This document shows positions 10,204 to 51,690 of a DNA stretch of 54,894 nt, piece by piece. Numbering within the stretch: the first letter of the stretch is position 1; each line of letters begins with the position of its first letter. The translations under genes and the position numbers were made by a program. The stretch is from Natronomonas sp. CBA1123. Lineage in GTDB: Archaea > Halobacteriota > Halobacteria > Halobacteriales > Haloarculaceae. The notes under the pieces were generated by a model. The model worked only from the letters and a program-made list of their open reading frames with translations, searched no databases and was not told where the DNA came from. The stretch spans positions 1-54,894 of the forward strand of contig NZ_WPCC01000021.1 in NCBI RefSeq assembly GCF_009741925.1, written 5' to 3'.

Positions 10204-13200
10204 ATGACACAGCAATCCACCGCCGATGAGCCGTGGCACCGCCGTCCGACCACCTACCGCCTGCTGGAAGCCGTCGCCCTCACGGGTAGTCTCGGCGCCG
10301 TCCTGACGACGTACCTCCTGCTCGGCGTCCATGCGACGGAGCTCAACCCGGCGTCGGCACTGCTCATCGAGCGCTTCGGGATCGAGGCCGTTGGGCTGGC
10401 CCGAATCGCCGTGGTTCTCGCAGCGTTCGCGGTGCTCGGCGGGCCGATTCGGCGCTGGCGACCGCTCTTCGCTGTTGCCCTCGCCTCGGGAACGGCGCTG
10501 TTGTATCTCGCCAACGGTGCGAACGACCTCCTCGTTCTCGCCCGGACGGGGTTGCCGGAGTCGTTCATCGTTGTTGACGTTGCAACGTTCGCCGCGGTCG
10601 TGGTCGGTGCGGCTGTCGTCGGTGCTGGCCGTCGCGAGATCGCTACTGGACTACGGGCAGCGCGTGGCCTGACGCCAGCGTGGTCGCCGTCGCCGCAGGC
10701 GACCGCCGCCGTCGCGTTCGCTGTGCTGTTGGTGGTGAGTGGTGTCGGGCCGTTCGCTGGGCTCGCTGGCCTCGCACCAACGGACCACGACGGACTGGCG
10801 AGCGCACAAACGAGTTGGACGAAATCCGCTGAATACACTGGCCATTCGACGGTAGTCAATTCGGTCACCACTGGCCCTGATGGCTACCTGTACTCTGGCG
10901 CAAGTTCGGGCGAGGTCCACAAGATTGACCCGTCGGATATGAGCCAAGTCGCTGTGTATTCGGGCCACGGCGACAGTTCAAACGCAGTTACAGTTGGGCC
11001 TGATGGATACGTGTATTCCGGGTCACAAGCGGGCGAGGTCCACAAGATCGATCCGTCGGATATGAGCCAAGTCGCTGTTTATACAGGACACCCCAAATCA
11101 GTCCAGTCGCTTGCCGTCGGTGCAAACGGATATGTGTATTCTGGCGGTGGTGGCCCGGACACAATCGACGGGGAGGTCCACAAGATTGACCCGTCGGATA
11201 TGAGTCAAGTTGGCATCTTCGCCGGGCACTCCAACACCGTTGAGAGTTTAGCATTCGATTCGAGTAATAACCTGTATTCAGGCGCGTTTGACGACGAGAT
11301 CCACAAAATCGATACGTCTGACATGACTGAAACCGGGACATACACCGGCCACTCGGGGGCAGTCATTTCGTTGACGGTGGGTGAAAACGGGAATCTGTAT
11401 TCTGCATCCAATGACAATGAAGTCCACAAGATTGACCTGTCGGATCTAAGCCAAGTAGACACCTACACTGGCCATTCAAACTCGGTGAAGTCAGTCGCCT
11501 TCAGTGCTGATGGATTTCTCTATTCTGGCGGTAATGATGACGAGGTTCACCGAGTCGACCCGGCGGATATGACGCAAGCAGATACCTACACCGGCCATTC
11601 TAATGACTTGAACACAATCGCGACAGACGACGAGGCATTCGTTTACTCTGGGACACATAACAACGTTATTCACAAGACTGACCCCGGCACCTCCGTCGGA
11701 CAGCCAATCACGGGCACCGTCACCGACAACGGCGGCAACCCTGTCGACGGCGCAACCGTCTCGACCGGCACGGGAGTCTCAACGACCACCGGCGCCGATG
11801 GCAGCTACTCGCTGACTGTCGAGAACACCGGCACGTACGATGTGACCGCCGAGACCGCCATCGACTCTGAAACCCAGACGGTCGACGTACCCGACGGCGG
11901 CATCACGGGCGTGAACTTCTCGCTCCAATCCGGCACCGTCGCCGGTGTCGTCGAGGATCAGAACGGCAACCCCGTCGCCGATGCGACGGTCACGACGTTG
12001 ACGTACAACACCGCGGACCCGAACGTCGACATCAACCTCGAAGAGCTCCGCGACATCGTCGAGAACCCACTACCGCCGCAGTGGGAGGAGTTTCAATCCC
12101 GCGAGGGTGTGACACCGACCGAGTTGACAACCGAGGGCACTGGGACAACCGCGGGTGGCGACCTCGTCTTCGCCGAACAGACCAGTGACACGCGGGTCCT
12201 GCTGCACACGCCCGACCAGTGGGAGCTTGAAGGCCAGCCTTGGCCGATGGACGGTGTCGTCAGCATCCCGACCGCCGAGTTGAATCCGCCGCGAGTCGCT
12301 GTCCCGGCTGATTCACGCCCCGTGTTCTCCTGTTGGAACACCGACCCCGGAACCATCGAGGACACGTTCGAGGACAACTTCGGCGGGCAACTCGACGGCG
12401 TCACCTACGACACGTGCGACTCGATTACGATTGAACGCCTCGGCCCAACCGGTAGCGTCGAGGAGACGACCGAAGTCACGCCGTCGCCCAGTATCCGCAT
12501 CCAGCAGGGCTGGGCGGCGATCTCGAACGGGTTCACCGTCGAGTACGAGACCGCACGACCGGACCTTGGCTCGGGTATCTACCGCGTCTACCCCAGCGAC
12601 GACCCGGACGCCGCGATGGTCTACGCCGTTGCGCCGAACGGCAACCCTGAGAAGATTGCGAACAACATCGTCAACGTCACGAACAACGAAATCGAGGCCA
12701 AGAACGACTACCTCCAAGAAATCAAAGACCAGCACGACGCCGGGAACATCGACATCAAGACCACGACGACGAACGACCGTGGTGAGTTCTCCTTCGAGAT
12801 CGACGAGACCGTCGTCGAGGAGGTCGAACTCCGAGCGGCCAAGAGCGGCACCGGGCTGGAGGCGCAACTCGCCAGCGGCGAACTGAATCGCCAGCAACTC
12901 GCTGCGGACTTCGAGGACACGGTCACCGGCGAGTTCAACACCTTCGACAAGTCGTCGGTGCGGTTCTCGGAGGCCGAAGTCGGAACCCAAGAGTTCGGCG
13001 ATGTGTGTCGCCAGATGGGCAGCGTCGCCGACGACCTCGGCGCCCCGTACACCGGCTCGGCGAGCACGGAAGTCCCGAACCCCGACGTGACCATCCAGGG
13101 CCAACGCGCCCCGATACCGGAGGGTGTCAGCCAGCCCGTTCGGGAGTGCGCCGTCCTCAATTACGCCCAACAGGCCCTGGAGGACCCCGGCAGCCTCCTG

Positions 13201-14676
13201 CCCGGCCTCGCCGGTGACATCGCCGACATGGCCCAAGCGGAACTCGAAGGCCACTACGAAAACATCCTCAACCTGCTGAAGGGCAACGAAGACCTCCAGT
13301 CGGTCGTCGAGGACGAACTCGGACGCGACCTCCCCGACGACCCCTCGGAACTCGACCGCGATGAAATCGAGACGGTCATCCGCGATGGGCTTGATGGCGT
13401 CGACAACCCGAGCGACGACATCAACGTGGGCGAACCCGACGACAGCCCCGTCCCCGACATCCCGGGTGGCGATGACGACAACGACGCCCCGACTGTCGAC
13501 GACCCAACCGAGGAAATCAGCGACCGCGTGAACGAAACGATCACACGCGAATGGCCGATCACCGGCGTCGACGACTGGGAGGAAGCCGGTCTCCTCATCC
13601 GCATCGACTACGCCGACGGCACCAGCGAGACGCTCTCTCGCGACAGCGAGTACGTCACGCTCGACGAGTCGGCGGTCGGGCCGGACACCGTCCGGCTCGA
13701 AGAGTTCCCGTTCGGCGAGGGCGACTCGGCGGTCGCGAACATCCGCCTCGATGTCTCCACGCCGCAGGGCATCGGCGGCGAAGAAACGCCGGTTCGGAAC
13801 CCGACGTTCGACGGCACCGTCCCGTCGCTGGACAGTATCCGGCTGTCCGACTCGGCGCCCGGACCCTCAGATGCCGTCACGGTCGGCGTGACGCCCGCCG
13901 AGTCCAGTCAGTTCGGCACACTGCAGACCGTGAACGTCACGGGGCCGCAGTGCAGCCGCTCCATCCAAGCGTCGGATGGTGACGCGACCTTCACGACCTG
14001 CGGCGCCGGCCCACACCGGGTTGCGGCGACGTTCACCAACGCCGACGGCGTCCAGTTCACCGAGGTCCTGAGCGTCAAGGCGGGCAACGCTGCCCAGGCG
14101 CGTGACCCGCTGATTCGTGGCGCCGCCGGCCCGACCGGCCGCTTCGCAGTGGCGGCGAACGGCCTCGAATCCGGTCGCATCGACGTGACCGCTGGTACGA
14201 GCGAGGTCATCCTCACCGGCATCGTCCCCGCGGACGTCGACATCCCGAACCGCGTGAAGGCCTCGACGACCGGCGTCGACGTGGCCCGCGGCGCCACCAC
14301 GACCGTCCGCATCCGGCAGGGCCCGAACGAGCAGACGATTCGCGACCGCATCGGCGTCGTACTGCACACGAGCGCGGTCGGGAACGAAAGCTTGCTCTGG
14401 CGGAACGGCCGCCCGATTCGGAACCCCGGCGACACCGCCTCCTCGTCAGTGGAACACTTCAACGATTCAACGGCTATAGATACATATTCATCAGACACGG
14501 CGACCGTCCGGGTAGAAGTTGACCGAGATCCATCCATCTTCCAAGAATTCCGACATTCCGTACAACTCAGATTCGCCGGAATCGATATCCCATTCCTCTC
14601 CACTTTCACCACGGTCGGCGCATCATCTTATGCCTCGATTTTGTACACCCATCTACCGAAATTAATCTGGTGGTGA
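10204..14676 (+). CDS. Giant membrane protein with seven-bladed beta-propeller
   Basis: A 1490-residue protein likely exposed on the cell or particle surface. The first ~190 residues hold four to five hydrophobic segments. Residues ~205-495 form seven repeats of the type YTGHS..V.S...GPDGYLYSG...GEVHKIDPSDMSQV, a seven-bladed WD40/YVTN-like propeller. Two carboxypeptidase-regulatory-like beta domains follow (ITGTVTDNGGNPVDGATV; VAGVVEDQNGNPVADATV), then a long helical/acidic region and Ig-like strands. The last ~70 residues are AT-richer, and the gene runs into an inserted HNH gene. A remnant of the probable old C-terminal membrane anchor survives at 15794-15853. I recall beta-propeller proteins on the vesicle-forming haloarchaeal plasmid pR1SE; homology is unverified. 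Confidence 0.85.
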   Translation: MTQQSTADEPWHRRPTTYRLLEAVALTGSLGAVLTTYLLLGVHATELNPASALLIERFGIEAVGLARIAVVLAAFAVLGGPIRRWRPLFAVALASGTALLYLANGANDLLVLARTGLPESFIVVDVATFAAVVVGAAVVGAGRREIATGLRAARGLTPAWSPSPQATAAVAFAVLLVVSGVGPFAGLAGLAPTDHDGLASAQTSWTKSAEYTGHSTVVNSVTTGPDGYLYSGASSGEVHKIDPSDMSQVAVYSGHGDSSNAVTVGPDGYVYSGSQAGEVHKIDPSDMSQVAVYTGHPKSVQSLAVGANGYVYSGGGGPDTIDGEVHKIDPSDMSQVGIFAGHSNTVESLAFDSSNNLYSGAFDDEIHKIDTSDMTETGTYTGHSGAVISLTVGENGNLYSASNDNEVHKIDLSDLSQVDTYTGHSNSVKSVAFSADGFLYSGGNDDEVHRVDPADMTQADTYTGHSNDLNTIATDDEAFVYSGTHNNVIHKTDPGTSVGQPITGTVTDNGGNPVDGATVSTGTGVSTTTGADGSYSLTVENTGTYDVTAETAIDSETQTVDVPDGGITGVNFSLQSGTVAGVVEDQNGNPVADATVTTLTYNTADPNVDINLEELRDIVENPLPPQWEEFQSREGVTPTELTTEGTGTTAGGDLVFAEQTSDTRVLLHTPDQWELEGQPWPMDGVVSIPTAELNPPRVAVPADSRPVFSCWNTDPGTIEDTFEDNFGGQLDGVTYDTCDSITIERLGPTGSVEETTEVTPSPSIRIQQGWAAISNGFTVEYETARPDLGSGIYRVYPSDDPDAAMVYAVAPNGNPEKIANNIVNVTNNEIEAKNDYLQEIKDQHDAGNIDIKTTTTNDRGEFSFEIDETVVEEVELRAAKSGTGLEAQLASGELNRQQLAADFEDTVTGEFNTFDKSSVRFSEAEVGTQEFGDVCRQMGSVADDLGAPYTGSASTEVPNPDVTIQGQRAPIPEGVSQPVRECAVLNYAQQALEDPGSLLPGLAGDIADMAQAELEGHYENILNLLKGNEDLQSVVEDELGRDLPDDPSELDRDEIETVIRDGLDGVDNPSDDINVGEPDDSPVPDIPGGDDDNDAPTVDDPTEEISDRVNETITREWPITGVDDWEEAGLLIRIDYADGTSETLSRDSEYVTLDESAVGPDTVRLEEFPFGEGDSAVANIRLDVSTPQGIGGEETPVRNPTFDGTVPSLDSIRLSDSAPGPSDAVTVGVTPAESSQFGTLQTVNVTGPQCSRSIQASDGDATFTTCGAGPHRVAATFTNADGVQFTEVLSVKAGNAAQARDPLIRGAAGPTGRFAVAANGLESGRIDVTAGTSEVILTGIVPADVDIPNRVKASTTGVDVARGATTTVRIRQGPNEQTIRDRIGVVLHTSAVGNESLLWRNGRPIRNPGDTASSSVEHFNDSTAIDTYSSDTATVRVEVDRDPSIFQEFRHSVQLRFAGIDIPFLSTFTTVGASSYASILYTHLPKLIWW

Positions 14677-35320: not shown

Positions 35321-36940
35321 CTATCTTGCAGCCCGGCGACCGAGGACGAATACAAAGACTGCAATCAGAATTGCACCGAGAGCAGCCTGACTGGTGACTA
35401 ACAGTCGGGCAATCTGCGAGGTCGGTTCGGGCTGGAAATCACCTAACCCCAGTGTCGTGAATGTGAGTGTGCTGAAGTAGAGTGCGTCAACCGGGTTCGC
35501 TACGAAGCGATTACTGGCGTCCCTAATGAGGTCGAACTGGCTGTAGATAACGGCATACGTCGCAATGATAGCGACCGCACACGTGACAATGCGGCTAAGG
35601 CTTTCACCATATTTGAATACAGCCCGCGACAGTCGGGCGAATCCCCACTCCAGGTACTCACCATTGCGCCAATGTCGTTTCCGCTGCATATCCTGCCGCA
35701 GGACGAACATCTCGCTCTGGAGCGACGGTCGAGCGTTCTCACGAGCTAGTTTCTCGAAGGTCTGGTAGGTGTCTGCTGCTTTCCCTAACTGATTCGTCGC
35801 TTTTTCAGAAGCCGTGTCTATGATTGCTGGATCATAACCGCACCTTTGTGGCGGGAAAATTGGGGACGTCTGCCACCAGTTCGCCTCCGAGATTCGCTGC
35901 TCTTCAGCGCGAAACTCTGTACCGTCGTTAATTTGTACATCAGTGAAGGTCGCTCCGTGTGGCCGACAATTCGTTAGGTTTGCGTCGAAGAGATTCGCTC
36001 GAACCAGAACGGCATGTTCAAGATCTGCATTGGTGAGGTCAGCCGCCGATAGGTTCGTGTCGGTGAGGTCTGTCTTCCTGAGATTCGCGTTAATGAGAGT
36101 GGAATCGGAAAGGTTGGCGTCGGTGAGATTGGCTCGTAAGAGTTCTGCATCGGTGAGGTCTGCCTCCACGAGAGTTGCGGCAGTAAGGTTGCTATCCCAG
36201 AGGTTTGCTTCAGTGAGATTGCTCTTCCAGAGATTGGCCTCTGTGAGATTAGCATGCCTGAGTGATGCGTTGGTGAGGTCGGCATTGGACAAGACCGAAT
36301 TGGTGAGATCTACCTCTCGCAATTCTGTGTTGATGAGCGTGGCATCCTTGACATTCGTATCTCGTAGGTTGGCACCTCTGAGCTTCGCATCCGTAAAATC
36401 GGTTTCTGAGAGAATCGCATTGCTGAGATCGGCGTTCTTAAAATACGTGTTGGTGAGGATACCAGACCAGAGGATTGCGTTACTGAGCGTAGTATCTCGG
36501 AGGTTCGTGTTGGTAAGGTCGGCCTCCCAGAGGGTCGCCTCTGTGAGGTCGGCCCCCACGAGAGTCGCGTCGGAGACATCGGCATTTCTGAGGTTCGCCT
36601 CTGTGAGGTCGGCCTCTTCAAGATTCGTCTCAGAAATGTTACTGTCACGTAACATAACACGTCCAAATGTCACTGCATCCCCCAACTGAAGTCCGGACAG
36701 CTTTGCTCCGTCGAGAAGTTCAGCGACATCCGAGGTCTGCTCCCGGATGTCCGGTGGTGCGCATGCCTGCTGCAGCGCTTCAGGGGATTTCGAGACTTCG
36801 TCCGAATCGGCATGCCAAATGCAATGGTCCGAACCTTCCACCACCTCCCTCCAGCAACAGTTCTGATGATCCGCTGATTGAGGGGTTGAATAGTCTTCGT
36901 CCCACGTGAATCCACAGCGGCCCGCTGGCACCTCAGACAT
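35321..36940 (-). CDS. Pentapeptide-repeat protein fused to an ion-channel domain
   Basis: 539 residues. The N-terminus has Cys/His positions that may bind metal. Residues ~75-335 contain dozens of A(D/N)Lxx pentapeptide repeats, which fold into a right-handed beta-helix. The C-terminal ~100 residues form a two-helix pore domain with TFTTLGLGDFQP, related to the TVGYGD potassium filter. The helix may act as a gate or dock. Pentapeptide-repeat/ion-channel fusions occur in archaea and bacteria; the filter here reads LGLGD, so selectivity is uncertain. Confidence 0.87.
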   Translation of the reverse strand: MSEVPAGRCGFTWDEDYSTPQSADHQNCCWREVVEGSDHCIWHADSDEVSKSPEALQQACAPPDIREQTSDVAELLDGAKLSGLQLGDAVTFGRVMLRDSNISETNLEEADLTEANLRNADVSDATLVGADLTEATLWEADLTNTNLRDTTLSNAILWSGILTNTYFKNADLSNAILSETDFTDAKLRGANLRDTNVKDATLINTELREVDLTNSVLSNADLTNASLRHANLTEANLWKSNLTEANLWDSNLTAATLVEADLTDAELLRANLTDANLSDSTLINANLRKTDLTDTNLSAADLTNADLEHAVLVRANLFDANLTNCRPHGATFTDVQINDGTEFRAEEQRISEANWWQTSPIFPPQRCGYDPAIIDTASEKATNQLGKAADTYQTFEKLARENARPSLQSEMFVLRQDMQRKRHWRNGEYLEWGFARLSRAVFKYGESLSRIVTCAVAIIATYAVIYSQFDLIRDASNRFVANPVDALYFSTLTFTTLGLGDFQPEPTSQIARLLVTSQAALGAILIAVFVFVLGRRAAR

Positions 36941-43750: not shown

Positions 43751-45094
43751 ATGGACTTCCGGGTGGAGGACGTACTGAATATAAAGACTATCGCGTTCTA
43801 CGTCCTCGGTCCCGCTTTCGTATTTCTCGGGATATCTGCGATACTTTCGGGCGGCATTTTCGGTGTCCTCAGTGGCCTATCCTTCCTCATAGGGGGCGTG
43901 TTTTTGATGCCGCCGGTGCGAAATGCCCTATTCACCGCTGTCCAGAAGGCTGGTGGACCAGCCTTCGGCAGCCTCGGTACTGCTACGGTGGCGCTCGTTA
44001 TCGTCGGGAGTCTTCTCTTTGGAACGCTCCTGATGCCACAGTCGGGCGGTCTCAGTGGACTCGACGGGCCACCCGATGACGACACTGTCACGTCTGGCGA
44101 ACCGGCCGCTACCTCAACTCCGACACCGTCGCCAACAGCAGAACCCACTGCGACGCCAACTGCGACCAGCCGCCCGACGTCTACTCCTACCGCGGCACCG
44201 ACACCAACAGCAACACCGCGGCCGACAGCGACCGCCACGCCGACGCCGAGTGGTCCACAGACAGCGTGGACCGTCACCGTCGTCTCAGTGACCGATGGAG
44301 ACACGATGGATGTTCGATTCGCCAACGGTAGTGTGGAGACGATTCGGCTCCTTGGGGTCGATACACCGGAGACCTCGGTGACGCAGGTGTCGCCCGACGA
44401 GTGGGAAGACATCCCGTCGACGACCGATGGTCGCGACTGGCTCGCCAACTGGGGGCAGGATGCCAGCCAGTATGCCGAAGACCGCCTCGCCGGTGAGGAA
44501 ATCTATATCGAGACCGACCCAGAAGCCGACCGCCGAGGCTACTACGGCCGACTACTCGTCTACGCCTCTCAATCAGAGTCGTCCTCGACATCGTTCAATC
44601 TGCGATTACTCGAGAACGGATACGCTCGCTACTACAGCAGTAGCTTCTCGAAGCGTGATGTCTATCAAGCGGCCGAATCCGACGCCCAGAATGGCAGGAT
44701 CGGTGTCTGGGACTATACGGCTCCGTCCACGCCCGAACCAAGTTCAGGCGGTGGCTCGGCAGCAGGTATCGAAGTCGCTGATGTTCATGAAGACGCTGAT
44801 GGCAATGACCATGACAACCTAAACGGCGAGTACGTGACTCTGGAGAATACCGGCGGCGAAGCCGTGAACATGGGCGGCTGGACCATGTTCGATGCAGCTA
44901 ACCACACGTACTACTTCCTCTCTGGATTCACGCTTGATGCTGGCGACGAGGTGACGATCTACACTGGCAGTGGCTCAGACTCCAGCTCGGAGTTGTACTG
45001 GGGGAGGGATAGGGCGGTTTGGAATAACGGAGGTGACACAGTCCACGTCGAAACAGACAGTGGTGACACGGTCGTCGAATATCCATACGACTAA
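43751..45094 (+). CDS. Membrane-anchored SNase nuclease with lamin-tail domain
   Basis: 447 residues. Three to four N-terminal hydrophobic helices (about 13-110) and a Thr/Pro-rich linker (about 120-170) carry an external thermonuclease domain: VSVTDGDTMDV, IRLLGVDTPE and DRRGYYGRLLVY supply the acidic and Arg residues of the staphylococcal nuclease site. A C-terminal lamin-tail-like beta domain (YVTLENTGGEAVNMGGW...) follows. It probably degrades DNA outside the cell, for nutrition or as a barrier to incoming DNA. Confidence 0.88.
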   Translation: MDFRVEDVLNIKTIAFYVLGPAFVFLGISAILSGGIFGVLSGLSFLIGGVFLMPPVRNALFTAVQKAGGPAFGSLGTATVALVIVGSLLFGTLLMPQSGGLSGLDGPPDDDTVTSGEPAATSTPTPSPTAEPTATPTATSRPTSTPTAAPTPTATPRPTATATPTPSGPQTAWTVTVVSVTDGDTMDVRFANGSVETIRLLGVDTPETSVTQVSPDEWEDIPSTTDGRDWLANWGQDASQYAEDRLAGEEIYIETDPEADRRGYYGRLLVYASQSESSSTSFNLRLLENGYARYYSSSFSKRDVYQAAESDAQNGRIGVWDYTAPSTPEPSSGGGSAAGIEVADVHEDADGNDHDNLNGEYVTLENTGGEAVNMGGWTMFDAANHTYYFLSGFTLDAGDEVTIYTGSGSDSSSELYWGRDRAVWNNGGDTVHVETDSGDTVVEYPYD

Positions 45095-46992: not shown

Positions 46993-47184
46993 AGGTGTAT
47001 GATATCACCCAACTGTTTTCAAGCCTTGGTGATTCTGCTTCTCAGTAAGATTCGACTTGTTCACCGCGTCTCATTTCTATTAGTATATCCTGACGATTGA
47101 ACGCCGTTCCGAGCGAGGTCCCTACGTCAGTATACGATTGGCTTCTCTAAGTTCGAATTGGAGCGTTTGAGCCCTGTATCTCAA

Positions 47185-47214: not shown

Positions 47215-50200
47215 ATGGGACGAGAAGAGGATATTCTCGGGGCTATCGACGAACTAGACGGGTTCGATTTTCAGAAGCTTGCCCGCCGTCTTCTCAAGCG
47301 AGAGTTATTTCCGAACTTAAATCCACTTCCGGATCAGGACGACCTCGGTCAAGACGCCCAAACAGAAGAGCTGCCGGTCACAGACCTTCCGTCTGTGGAT
47401 GGGGAAGATATCACGTTCGCCATCTCAAAGACAAATACGAGGTCGAAACTGACGGGAGATTGTGACCGGTGTCGTGAGGTGGGTCACGACATCGAGACAT
47501 TCATTTTCGTCACGTTTGGGGAAGTCACGAACGCCCGCCAGCAGGAATGGAAGCAGCACGTTCAAGACGAGTACGGGTGGGAACTCGTCATCTACGAGCG
47601 AACATGGTTTGCGGACGTGGTAACGCAACCTGAGCACGAGAAACTGAGTGAGGAAGTACTAGGGATTCCCCCGCTGAACGGTGATTACTATGCGGATATT
47701 GTCGAGGCGTTCAAGCGTGAAACCGAGAAAACCTTGAAGGGGGTATCGACGACAATCCCTCTTCTTGACCAACATCTATCTCGATCGGAAGTTTCAGAGA
47801 TTCATACCAAGCTTACTGCGGGCGATGGAGTGTTGGTGACCGGAGAGGGTGGCGTCGGGAAATCAGGTGTGCTTGCTCAGCTCGTAGAGCAGTGGACTGA
47901 CAACCCGGTATTGTTCATCGATGCTCGACGCTTTTCGGAATGCTCGACGGCTACCGAGCTCAGGCACGCGTTTGATTTCAACGGACCTCTCTCGGATGCT
48001 GTCGCCCGTGTTGGCCGGCACAATAACTGTTTGGTGATTGTAGATCAGCTCGACAACATAGGGGGGACCCCTGCGGCCAACATCTTCACTGATTTCCTCA
48101 CAGCGGTAAGTGATGTTGATGGTGTCTATCCTGCCGCTGCCTGCCGCAGTTGGGATCTGGAAAACCAGCGAGTCTTTGATTCGCTTACCGACGAAGACAG
48201 GTTCACGACGGTCACGGTCTCCGAACTGTCACGGCCGCAGGTCCGTGACACTCTTTCAGACCTCGGTATCACCGACTACAGCGATGAAATCCTAACGCTT
48301 GGTCAGAATCTGTTGAATCTCTCAATCATCGCTGAACTAAAAACACGAACTGAGCCATCACAGATCGACTTCACCGCCATAAGGGCACAAGTGGAGCTGT
48401 GGGACCAGTATCAGGAAACCCTGGTCGAACGAGAAACGCAAGGCGGTGAATGGGATGAACGGTCCGGAGACGAGGTCCGGGCACGGGCAATCGAACTTGC
48501 ACAGACGGGTCTTCGAGACGGGTCTCGCGTATTTCCGATCAGCCTCCGGCGGGAACGACCGGATAAGCGTCTTATCAGCCGAGATGTTATTGTCAGAGAA
48601 GTTGGGGAACGATACCGATTCCGACACGAGGAACTTCAGGACTACTTCTACGCCTGGAACGCAGTGAACCGGCTAGGGTGGACTACCCCCCAGGAGGTGT
48701 TAGGGGAAATTGACGAACGTGTCGCAGCAGGGGTTTTCCGTTGGGTGATACGAATTCTGCTCAAACGAGATGGCGTATCGGCGAAGGAATTTCTTGATGC
48801 GGCGTTGTCCGATGACAACCTCGGCTATTATGCGGCCACTCGAATCATCGATGAAATCACGACATGGGAGCCGGCGGACGTTGAGGACGATGTTGTAGAC
48901 GTTGCACTCTCGCAGATTGATTCAAACGAACAGTATTGCGAATATTTCTATACGAATCTCGAATCAGCAGCTTGGGTGGAGACCCTCTATGAGCGAGGAC
49001 GGTTTGATGACCCCTGCGGACCGGTGATGGCGTATCTAAAACAAGTCGCGACCGAAGTCCCGGACTTGACCGTTGATATCATCCAGAGTACAGGCACGGA
49101 TCAAGATCGCTTCCAAGCGGCCTTTGTAAAAGCAGCGGAGGAACTTCCGACGGAGCAGGCAACACAGTGTGTGGAGGTCTTCACCGACTGGCTTCCGGCG
49201 GCTGACGCTGAGGTAGGTCCTTATACCGTTCATTACCACAATTTCATCGAAAAACTGGTTGCAGAGAATGCCATAGACAGCGCCCTTTCAATGCTGTCTG
49301 GATTTACCGACCCGCAGCCACCTGACCCGGAAATCATCCAGAGGGAGCTCGCTAATGGGGAGACCTGGAACCATCGAATGCAGACCGAAGCGACTGCGGT
49401 CGCGCGTGTTCATACTATTGAAAAGGCGATTGAAACGGTTGTGGCCGATCTCCCAGAAGAATACACGGAGGACGTCATTCACCTCTTAGAGTCCAATCTT
49501 CGCAAGGCTATCCGACTGGAAGCGCAGGAAATGGATGCGGACCCGGGTGAACTGCCGTGGCCACGGTACGCAGGTGGATCTGACCTGCACAATTCAAAAC
49601 TCAAGGAAGTTCTTCTCGACGAACTTCGGAGCTTCCTTGAAGAATGGATTGCTACAGAGCCGTCCGCCGCAGATCGTCGCGCCCTGTTGGATCGATATCT
49701 GAACGATTTTAGACTCTTCCGGCGGCTCGGCCTCTACCTTCTGAGTCAGAATGCCGCTGCGTTCCCTGATATGGTCCGAGAAGAACTCCTCGCAGAGGAG
49801 AATTATGACGACTATTCGATTAAACAGGAATTCTTCCAGTTGCTCCAAGACGGGTACCAGGTTTTATCCACTGTGGAGCAAGACCGGGTCCTCGACATCA
49901 TCGATGAGGGCCCAGACCGAGCAGAATTGGTTGAAAAAGCAGAAGCACGGGAAGAGCGATTCCCTGAGCGCGACATTGACGATGTCGTAGATGAGGAAAT
50001 TGACCTATGGCAGTTACGCCGATTATGGATGATACGTGACCATCTTTCGGGCGATCAAGTTGACCGTGTTGAACAGCTCGTTGAAACATATGGTGAACCA
50101 GACCATCTCGAGGGTAATCGCTCTGCGAGGATGAGCGCAGTCTCGTTCGAAGGCCCGATGGATTCTGAAGAACTCCGTGATCTGGACGCTGATGAGATAT

Positions 50201-51690
50201 TCGAACTATGCGTTAACTGGGACCCGGATGAGGCCGATGGGGACACGGATTTCCTCACCGAGATTTCACCACGCGGCCTCGCAGAAGATATCAAGGAATT
50301 GATTGCAGAATCGCCTAGCAAATTCACACCCTACCTGAATATCCTTTTCGACGCAGATTCCATCTACATCGCCTACGGACTTGATGGCTTCCGCGACGCG
50401 CTTGACGCCGACCGTGAATTCGAATGGGGGCCGGTTCTCGACCTGTGTCAGGAGACAACGACGCGCGACGATGCTCAGGCCTCATCAAGTCGTAAACATG
50501 CGTGCCGGTTACTGTCAGAGGGGCTATCCCAGGAAAAGACTACCCTGTTAGAGCATCAGAATGGGATTCGTGACTGTCTACTAACTCTTGCTAACGATTC
50601 TGACCCAGAACTCGAAGACGAGGACCGCGGGTATCTTGGCCACGACCGTCCACTACAGGTTGCAATAAATGCGGTCCGGCCTATCGCCGTTGACACCCTC
50701 ATCACATATGCAGTGGAACGCGCAAAAGCTGCGGGATTTGACGGGTACGACAAAGAACAAGAATCCGGCATTGAATCCGGCGTCCGAACATGTCTCATCA
50801 GAAAAATGGACGATCCGAGTACAGCGGTCCATTGCGTCTTCGGGAAGCGGCTTCGGAATCTGTTATGGGTTGATCGGGAACTGGTTGAGAATAATCTTGA
50901 GACCCTCTTTCCGATGGAAGATGATTCGGAGGCCCGTGACCGCTTCAGTGCTGCTTGGGCGGCATATCTTAGTGTCTCTCCTTGGGTGGACGAACTTTAT
51001 CACGACCTGAAGGATCAGTATTTCCATTCGATTGAGTTACACGGCACAGAGGATCGGTTCACCGGGAACACCGAAGGGAACAGGTTCGTCGGCCACGCCC
51101 TCTGCTCGTATATTCACACAGACGAATCGTTGACGTCGTCTGACAGTTTGTTGCCCTACTTCTACGAGAACACAAGCCCCGATACGGCTGGGAGTGCAGC
51201 GTGGCAGTTGTGGCGGTGGGCAGACCAAGAACCGGAGTTCCGTGAACGGTGGCCAGATATCCGGGCACTGTGGGAATGGCGCTTAGACGAATCGAGTGAT
51301 AACTATGAGGCTCATTCGAAGGAATTTGGGTGGTTCGTAGAATGGCTTGATCTGATCCCCGAGGAGGTTGAACCGACGACGATTAAATCGATGTTACAGC
51401 GCACGACTCCGATTCTTGTATACAATCGACGTGGGTGGAAGACGTTGGAGACCTATTTGGCGAGATGGGCGGACAACAACCCTCATTGCTGTATCGAAAT
51501 TTACGGTAAACTTCTCCGTCAGCCCCAGATTCCTGATTACATGGAGTTTGAGGATGAGGCAATGACCATATTGGAAACTGCGCTTCAAGCCGGAGGGGAT
51601 ACCCGCGACCTCGCGCTTGAAGTAACTGAAATGGTGGCAGAGCATGATCAAACATTCCTTAGCCTACTACGGGAATATAGTGTTGACTGA
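47215..51690 (+). CDS. Avs-like STAND NTPase with Mrr-like N-terminus
   Basis: About 1491 residues. Residues 1-140 resemble an Mrr-type restriction endonuclease (FDFQKLARRLLKR, then GQDAQ and FAISKT), with an altered catalytic triplet (Ser-Lys in place of Glu-X-Lys). The STAND/NACHT-like ATPase follows, with Walker A VTGEGGVGKS (208-217), Walker B LVIVDQLD (273-280) and a winged-helix-like part near 400-480. The remaining ~900 residues are helical repeats, suited to sense a phage protein. This plan matches antiviral Avs proteins, which detect viral terminase or portal and then degrade DNA. It is AT-richer than the module and probably recent cargo. Confidence 0.82.
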   Translation: MGREEDILGAIDELDGFDFQKLARRLLKRELFPNLNPLPDQDDLGQDAQTEELPVTDLPSVDGEDITFAISKTNTRSKLTGDCDRCREVGHDIETFIFVTFGEVTNARQQEWKQHVQDEYGWELVIYERTWFADVVTQPEHEKLSEEVLGIPPLNGDYYADIVEAFKRETEKTLKGVSTTIPLLDQHLSRSEVSEIHTKLTAGDGVLVTGEGGVGKSGVLAQLVEQWTDNPVLFIDARRFSECSTATELRHAFDFNGPLSDAVARVGRHNNCLVIVDQLDNIGGTPAANIFTDFLTAVSDVDGVYPAAACRSWDLENQRVFDSLTDEDRFTTVTVSELSRPQVRDTLSDLGITDYSDEILTLGQNLLNLSIIAELKTRTEPSQIDFTAIRAQVELWDQYQETLVERETQGGEWDERSGDEVRARAIELAQTGLRDGSRVFPISLRRERPDKRLISRDVIVREVGERYRFRHEELQDYFYAWNAVNRLGWTTPQEVLGEIDERVAAGVFRWVIRILLKRDGVSAKEFLDAALSDDNLGYYAATRIIDEITTWEPADVEDDVVDVALSQIDSNEQYCEYFYTNLESAAWVETLYERGRFDDPCGPVMAYLKQVATEVPDLTVDIIQSTGTDQDRFQAAFVKAAEELPTEQATQCVEVFTDWLPAADAEVGPYTVHYHNFIEKLVAENAIDSALSMLSGFTDPQPPDPEIIQRELANGETWNHRMQTEATAVARVHTIEKAIETVVADLPEEYTEDVIHLLESNLRKAIRLEAQEMDADPGELPWPRYAGGSDLHNSKLKEVLLDELRSFLEEWIATEPSAADRRALLDRYLNDFRLFRRLGLYLLSQNAAAFPDMVREELLAEENYDDYSIKQEFFQLLQDGYQVLSTVEQDRVLDIIDEGPDRAELVEKAEAREERFPERDIDDVVDEEIDLWQLRRLWMIRDHLSGDQVDRVEQLVETYGEPDHLEGNRSARMSAVSFEGPMDSEELRDLDADEIFELCVNWDPDEADGDTDFLTEISPRGLAEDIKELIAESPSKFTPYLNILFDADSIYIAYGLDGFRDALDADREFEWGPVLDLCQETTTRDDAQASSSRKHACRLLSEGLSQEKTTLLEHQNGIRDCLLTLANDSDPELEDEDRGYLGHDRPLQVAINAVRPIAVDTLITYAVERAKAAGFDGYDKEQESGIESGVRTCLIRKMDDPSTAVHCVFGKRLRNLLWVDRELVENNLETLFPMEDDSEARDRFSAAWAAYLSVSPWVDELYHDLKDQYFHSIELHGTEDRFTGNTEGNRFVGHALCSYIHTDESLTSSDSLLPYFYENTSPDTAGSAAWQLWRWADQEPEFRERWPDIRALWEWRLDESSDNYEAHSKEFGWFVEWLDLIPEEVEPTTIKSMLQRTTPILVYNRRGWKTLETYLARWADNNPHCCIEIYGKLLRQPQIPDYMEFEDEAMTILETALQAGGDTRDLALEVTEMVAEHDQTFLSLLREYSVD

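What the first reader, a model, noticed from the sequence alone, without database searches (positions are those of the whole stretch)
47215..51690. Archaeal Avs-like STAND defence protein with an altered Mrr-type nuclease
The domain order nuclease-STAND-long helical sensor and the ~1490-residue length match Avs antiviral proteins. The catalytic triplet near residue 70 reads IleSerLys instead of an acidic-X-Lys, and the sensor half has no obvious match by eye, so the target may be new.
Basis: partly seen in the sequence, partly recalled or inferred. Interest (0 to 1): 0.75.

Follow-up and report, generated by a model that had tools for sequence, protein, structure and literature searches.

The report
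Archaeal nuclease-STAND protein with DSR1 sensor
A salt-loving archaeon carries a three-part protein that looks like an antiviral alarm: a DNA-cutting domain and an Avs4-like ATP switch, joined to the virus-sensing half of a different bacterial defence protein, DSR1, which suggests that this sensor is swapped between unrelated defence machines.

Summary
The ORF at 47215-51690 is real (1,491 aa). Its order is nuclease, STAND ATPase, long helical sensor, so "Avs-like" is right as a description of layout. It is not a member of Avs1-4.

The sensor half does have a match. It belongs to the family of the C-terminal region of DSR1 (defence-associated sirtuin 1). A profile built only from relatives outside the haloarchaea hits it with E = 1.8e-75. 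Profile against profile gives probability 100 over 860 columns. The same test against the sensors of Avs4 and DSR2 gives nothing.

The N-terminal domain is an Mrr-type nuclease. Its best solved structural match is the Avs4 nuclease (Z 10.5), and its ATPase is nearest Avs4 as well. The protein therefore joins an Avs4-like front end to a DSR1-type sensor.

"IleSerLys" is not a broken acidic-X-Lys triplet. None of 16 homologues compared has acidic-X-Lys there. The family's invariant residues D43, D47 and K78 are kept, but E20, H68 and S70 are replaced, so activity is uncertain.

About 20 haloarchaeal relatives carry the same sensor behind membrane, helical or plain AAA front ends. DSR1 relatives carry it behind SIR2. 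I call it a new variant of a known kind. Function, trigger and nuclease activity are inferred.

The parts
47215..51690 (+). Whole gene, 1,491 aa: Mrr-type nuclease - STAND ATPase - DSR1-type sensor
   Evidence: ORF and translation; start supported by alignment of relatives
47215..47679 (+). N-terminal Mrr-type (PD-(D/E)XK-like) nuclease domain, residues 1-155
   Evidence: 16 haloarchaeal homologues, several over the Pfam Mrr_cat cut-off; AlphaFold model best matches Avs4 nuclease 8dgf Z 10.5, then AspBHI/MspJI Z 8.6/8.4; PADLOC Argonaute-associated REase 9e-5
47341..47355 (+). D43-LGQ-D47: the two Asp invariant in the nuclease family (family consensus DGGxD)
47422..47430 (+).
47446..47448 (+). 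K78, invariant Lys of the nuclease family (KLxxD), candidate catalytic Lys
47692..48759 (+). STAND ATPase and winged-helix region, residues about 160-515
   Evidence: hhalign with archaeal Avs4 E 8e-7 over 361 columns, with an Agrobacterium ATP-binding protein E 1e-13; PADLOC PDC-M54A 3e-11
47842..47865 (+). Walker A, GEGGVGKS (residues 210-217)
   Evidence: invariant positions
48886..51660 (+). DSR1-type C-terminal sensor, residues about 558-1482, HEAT-like alpha-solenoid
   Evidence: DSR1-side HMM E 1.8e-75, 254 bits; profile-profile Prob 100, E 3e-65; PADLOC Dsr1 1.8e-36; model pLDDT 84, all helical

Best explanation
It is a single-protein antiviral sensor-effector of the STAND type. SHOWN by sequence or model: an Mrr-type nuclease domain, an Avs4-like STAND ATPase with intact Walker motifs and winged helix, and a C-terminal alpha-solenoid that is homologous along its whole length to the sensor half of DSR1. 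SHOWN in relatives: the same sensor occurs directly behind or beside a SIR2 NADase (the DSR1 layout), and behind membrane, helical or plain AAA/STAND front ends. INFERRED: the sensor binds a conserved viral protein made late in infection. By analogy with DSR2 (tail tube) and Avs (terminase, portal), the likeliest candidate is a virion-assembly protein of a haloarchaeal tailed virus. Binding lets the ATPase bind ATP and the protein oligomerise. This brings the nuclease domains together to cut DNA and stop the infection, probably at the cost of the cell.
For: Sensor = DSR1: PADLOC Dsr1 E 1.8e-36, and 11 of 12 relatives match. A non-haloarchaeal DSR1-side HMM gives 1.8e-75 over residues 558-1482, with no hit to reversed copies. 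hhalign gives Prob 100, E 3e-65 over 860 columns, against noise for the reversed control, the Avs4 sensor and the DSR2 C-terminal region. One member of the DSR1 side is a full-length SIR2 DSR1 (1392 bits, Pfam SIR2_2 2e-21). Plain tblastn links an intermediate (L045) both to haloarchaeal members (2e-39) and to the Vibrio pair (1e-14). ATPase and nuclease nearest Avs4. Effector swapping and patchy spread. Some relatives sit beside defence genes: a type IIG restriction-methylation gene and GajB- or type IV-like genes.
Against: No functional data. No close homologue of the whole protein exists in what was searched (best about 35% identity), so selection on the nuclease cannot be measured. Three conserved polar positions of the nuclease are replaced (Q20, F68, I70). 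The window's own flanks hold no recognised defence gene. The PADLOC model that I think represents the phage-tested DSR1 (PDLC02183) is reached only weakly by two relatives and not by the window protein itself.
Confidence: 0.7

Rival explanations
1. It has the same architecture and sensor, but the nuclease is catalytically weak or dead, and the protein acts by another route (for example as a decoy, by oligomer formation, or by recruiting a second enzyme).
For: E20 to Q, H68 to F and S/T70 to I at positions conserved in nearly all 16 homologues. The isolated domain falls below Pfam's reporting limit. The active-site hairpin is modelled with low confidence, residues 40-63 pLDDT under 50.
Against: The invariant D43, D47, G63, K78, D82, T100 and W122 are all kept, which is not the pattern of a decaying domain. 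The ORF is intact.
Confidence: 0.25
2. It is a divergent Avs4 that senses the phage portal protein.
For: The ATPase is nearest Avs4 and the nuclease model is nearest Avs4. The sensor model aligns with the Avs4 sensor in the same order, Z 11.8 over 486 residues.
Against: NCBIfam Avs4 26.9 bits against a cut-off of 1500. The sensor has no profile similarity to a true archaeal Avs4 (Prob 0.6). Z 11.8 lies within the background for alpha-solenoids (CAND1 14.8, importins 12-14).
Confidence: 0.05
3. It is a STAND protein with a non-defence role, for example signalling or control of a resident mobile element.
For: The window's flanks carry no recognised defence genes, and STAND proteins also act as regulators (general knowledge).
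Against: It has a nuclease effector and no DNA-binding regulator domain. The sensor is shared with DSR1. Distribution is patchy, with no copy in the other 19 same-genus genomes, and several relatives are on plasmids.
Confidence: 0.1

Closest known systems
DSR1 (defence-associated sirtuin 1; PADLOC Dsr1, PDLC04166)
   Same: Whole-length homology of the C-terminal sensor (about 925 residues)
   Different: DSR1 has a SIR2 NADase and no ATPase. Here a STAND ATPase and an Mrr-type nuclease replace SIR2.
Avs4 (AVAST type 4)
   Same: Layout; ATPase similarity; nuclease model best matches the Avs4 nuclease
   Different: The sensor is not homologous by profile; family score is far below cut-off; the Avs4 nuclease carries Q-A-K where this one has A-I-S.
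Haloarchaeal STAND/AAA proteins with the same sensor (e.g. Haloferax mediterranei WP_004060448, Natronorubrum bangense WP_240756956)
   Same: STAND plus sensor at 29-34% identity
   Different: N-terminus is a multi-pass membrane segment, a helical domain, or absent with another AAA ATPase.
Haloarchaeal Mrr-type restriction endonucleases of about 400 aa (Pfam PF04471 relatives)
   Same: Nuclease domain with D-x-G-x-D and KLxxD
   Different: They are stand-alone enzymes without STAND or sensor. The window copy has Q20, F68 and I70.
DSR2
   Same: A helical C-terminal sensor that controls an effector (literature, PMC10973363)
   Different: No profile similarity between the DSR2 C-terminal region and this sensor, so the tail-tube trigger cannot be carried over by homology.

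Membership tests
STAND NTPase superfamily | P-loop with Walker A, Walker B and winged-helix His, between effector and sensor | tested here: met
   G210-EGGVGKS, D277, H471 invariant in relatives; profile match to the Avs4 ATPase over 361 columns. Individual Pfam STAND models are below their cut-offs.
Avs4 (NCBIfam NF041815) | Full-length family score of at least 1500 bits | tested here: not met
   26.9 bits, residues 159-298 only; a true archaeal Avs4 scores 2113
Avs4 | Homologous sensor domain | tested here: not met
   hhalign Prob 0.6 against L095/L096 sensors. The structural match of Z 11.8 is within alpha-solenoid background, so a very remote link is not excluded.
Avs1, Avs2, Avs3 | Family profile match beyond the P-loop | tested here: not met
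   Only Avs2, E 0.04 over 36 residues, in the PADLOC scan
DSR1 | C-terminal DSR1 sensor | tested here: met
DSR1 | N-terminal SIR2 NADase | tested here: not met
   Replaced by an Mrr-type nuclease and STAND ATPase; no SIR2 in Pfam or PADLOC scans
Mrr-type nuclease (Pfam PF04471) | Restriction-endonuclease fold and conserved acidic/Lys residues | tested here: met
   Fold match Z 8-10.5 to Avs4, AspBHI, MspJI; D43, D47, K78 kept. Direct Pfam hit absent.
Anti-virus defence system | Protection against virus that depends on the gene | not testable with these tools
   Needs virus challenge

The most novel reading that the evidence does not exclude
The DSR1 sensor is an exchangeable virus-recognition module. 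Evolution has fitted it both to ATP-independent SIR2 NADases and to ATP-driven STAND switches with nuclease, membrane or other effectors. In bacteria and archaea it reads one conserved viral feature, so triggers found for DSR1 should predict those of this protein.
Probability: 0.45. Interest if true: 0.78.

Novelty: new variant of a known kind. Interest (0 to 1): 0.62.

Why it matters
DSR1 and Avs proteins are treated as separate defence families. Here the sensor of one sits on the ATP switch and nuclease of the other, and a set of haloarchaeal relatives shows the same sensor behind several further effectors. If the shared sensor recognises a shared viral feature, triggers found in either setting could be tested in the other. 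It also offers a natural experiment: does the same sensor work with and without an ATP-driven switch?

Tried and rejected
Pattern scans of genome contigs with P0001 and with a DSR1 alignment found no relatives. Viral contigs gave none for P0001 and one SIR2-only match for the DSR1 alignment. The phage collection gave no match for the window protein, the archaeal DSR1 or the Vibrio sensor.

Avs4 membership was rejected. Homology of the sensor to DSR2 was looked for and not found.

Sequence search of the PDB with the sensor found nothing. Fold search gave only generic HEAT/ARM solenoids (CAND1, importins, PP2A scaffold), so no function was read from it. DSR2 was not among the listed matches, which proves nothing.

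I tried to reach members of PADLOC's other Dsr1 model (PDLC02183) in archaea. One hit covers only SIR2 and the other is a protein already held as L048.

A combined alignment of nuclease and STAND rows misaligned and was dropped. As a result the STAND domain itself was not modelled.

The conserved-neighbour search showed no shared partner gene; shared neighbours came only from near-identical loci or mobile-element genes. The printed table was cut and contains no window row in the part shown.

I first read the finding's 'IleSerLys' as possible evidence of loss of catalysis. The family alignment removed that argument and replaced it with Q20, F68 and I70.
Full report
WHAT IS THERE. The reading frame at 47215-51690 on the + strand is real and uninterrupted. 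It can be extended to a TTG at 47158 (1,510 aa), but the ATG at 47215 (1,491 aa) is favoured because homologous nuclease domains start at the same point. The gene is present once in its genome and absent from the other 19 same-genus genomes searched. Its G+C is 0.53, close to its immediate neighbourhood and below the 0.62-0.68 found over much of the window's first 28 kb and its last 3 kb.

SENSOR. A scan of PADLOC-DB gave Dsr1 (PDLC04166), E 1.8e-36, for residues 831-1482, and 11 of 12 relatives match the same model. I collected relatives by whole-genome search and aligned 12 haloarchaeal sensors (A2). A2 found more distant proteins in the same phylum. One, L050:5461-9135, is a full-length DSR1 by PADLOC (1392 bits over 5-1223) with a Pfam SIR2_2 domain (2e-21). 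Others are a split SIR2 gene plus a separate sensor gene (L048, L049) or a sensor with another N-terminus (L046, L047). A Vibrio coralliilyticus plasmid carries the split pair too, annotated 'SIR2 family protein' and 'hypothetical protein'.

TESTS OF THAT HOMOLOGY. An HMM built only from six non-haloarchaeal DSR1-side proteins hits the window protein with 254 bits, E 1.8e-75 (database size set to 10,000), residues about 558-1482. No reversed haloarchaeal sequence was hit, and in the converse search with the haloarchaeal profile no shuffled or reversed DSR1-side sequence was hit; that converse profile found five of the six DSR1-side proteins, not the Vibrio sensor, which hhalign does link (Prob 98.3, E 1e-14). 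Profile against profile gives Prob 100, E 3e-65 over 860 columns, while the reversed profile gives Prob 0.2. Plain tblastn from an intermediate (L045) reaches Haloferax mediterranei (2e-39), a Streptomyces plasmid protein (2e-46) and the Vibrio protein (1e-14). A true archaeal Avs4 (L095, 2113 bits against a cut-off of 1500) has a sensor with no profile similarity to ours (Prob 0.6), and neither has the DSR2 C-terminal region (Prob 0.5). The DSR1 assignment is therefore specific and not a general property of helical repeats. One caveat: PADLOC has three Dsr1 models. From its accession, next to Dsr2 and Avs, I believe PDLC02183 is the one closest to the phage-tested protein. It is reached only weakly, by two relatives and by L048, and not by the window protein.

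SENSOR STRUCTURE. AlphaFold2 with an 18-row alignment gives mean pLDDT 84 for residues 515-1491, almost all helical. Fold searches return generic HEAT/ARM solenoids (CAND1 Z 14.8, importins, PP2A scaffold). The Avs4 sensor appears at Z 11.8, which is within that background. The fold alone names no function.

ATPASE. Walker A (G210-EGGVGKS), Walker B Asp (D277) and winged-helix His (H471) are invariant in the family. The region is closest to Avs4 (NCBIfam 6.8e-7; hhalign 8e-7 over 361 columns), to PADLOC candidate PDC-M54A (3e-11) and to an Agrobacterium plasmid protein next to a Shedu nuclease (1e-13).

NUCLEASE. Residues 1-155 match a family of haloarchaeal enzymes of about 400 aa, several of which pass the Pfam Mrr_cat cut-off. 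The model of residues 1-183 (pLDDT 72, low at 40-63) has Avs4's N-terminal nuclease as best solved match (Z 10.5), followed by AspBHI and MspJI (Z 8.6 and 8.4). In an alignment of 17 sequences the invariant residues are L27, D43, D47, G63, K78, D82, T100 and W122. The Ile-Ser-Lys at 70-72 lies where relatives have S/T-x-x; no relative has acidic-X-Lys there. The window copy does depart from the family at E20 (Q), H68 (F) and S/T70 (I), so whether it cuts DNA is open. For comparison, the archaeal Avs4 carries a Q-A-K motif in its nuclease.

MODULE EXCHANGE. Among 391 genomes of the class, 20 have a match, the window's own genome included. Five relatives share the ATPase and sensor but carry a multi-pass membrane N-terminus, three carry a helical N-terminus without membrane segments, and ten have only a different AAA-type ATPase in front of the sensor; a further one is a fragment. 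In a maximum-likelihood tree the haloarchaeal STAND/AAA sensors form one side of a well-supported branch from the SIR2 and related forms (SH-aLRT 99). The membrane and AAA types are each one clade, and the window protein is a long, separate branch. One recruitment of the sensor onto ATP-driven switches followed by effector changes is consistent with this, but long branches and deviating amino-acid make-up make deep joins uncertain.

MECHANISM. Shown: the three domains, their integrity and their relatives. Established for relatives (literature): the DSR2 C-terminal domain binds a phage tail tube protein and releases SIR2 (PMC10973363), and Avs5, a STAND protein with a SIR2 effector, defends against jumbo phages (PMC12931631). 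That Avs4 is bound by a phage portal is the title of PDB entry 8dgf. DSR1 is reported to inhibit phage replication without cell death (PMC10952713 citing Garb et al. 2022). Inferred: the sensor binds a viral protein, the STAND switch oligomerises with ATP, and the nuclease cuts DNA. The viral trigger is unknown; because the sensor is not homologous to those of DSR2 or Avs4, neither tail tube nor portal can be assumed.

CONTEXT. Neighbouring genes of the window copy show no recognised defence family. Some relatives do sit beside restriction genes: L055 is preceded by a type IIG-like enzyme, L051 has a type IV-like gene and L061 a GajB-like helicase. Nine haloarchaeal plasmids in the plasmid collection carry relatives over 60% or more of the protein.

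VERDICT. A real, intact, Avs-like STAND protein. It is not an Avs1-4 and not a DSR1; it combines an Avs4-like front with a DSR1 sensor. In a limited literature search I found no description of this combination; most subscription papers are not held, so priority is not established.

Noticed in passing
window 43751-45091 (+): Protein with a staphylococcal nuclease domain followed by a lamin-tail domain and an N-terminal hydrophobic stretch, about 2 kb upstream of the gene.
   Followed up: no
window 10204-14673 (+): A 1,490-aa protein with WD40-type beta-propeller repeats and a carboxypeptidase-regulatory-like domain, at the head of a long same-strand gene run.
   Followed up: no
window 35324-36940 (-): Pentapeptide-repeat protein ending in an ion-channel (Ion_trans_2) domain.
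   Followed up: no
L088 3977-7718 (Vibrio coralliilyticus plasmid pOCN014); L048; L049: DSR1 exists as a two-gene form, SIR2 gene immediately before a separate sensor gene, in a bacterium and in archaea; the sensor gene is annotated hypothetical in the bacterium.
   Followed up: partly
L046, L047, L118 5395-8667 (Streptomyces plasmid), L045 5919-9507: DSR1-type sensors whose N-terminal domain, or upstream gene for L045, is not recognised as SIR2 or STAND; one has a weak Sipho_Gp157 match.
   Followed up: partly
L003, L013, L015, L016, L017, L094, L089: A clade with two to five membrane-spanning stretches in front of the same STAND-sensor unit, possibly pore-forming effectors.
   Followed up: partly
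L062 and L064: A near-identical four-gene block (about 357, 1274, 294 and 508 aa) next to the plain-AAA sensor protein in two genomes; one member weakly matches mads_8.
   Followed up: no
L093 3743-10122 (Agrobacterium plasmid): A Shedu nuclease gene directly before a 1,620-aa ATP-binding protein whose ATPase resembles this one but whose C-terminus does not.
   Followed up: no
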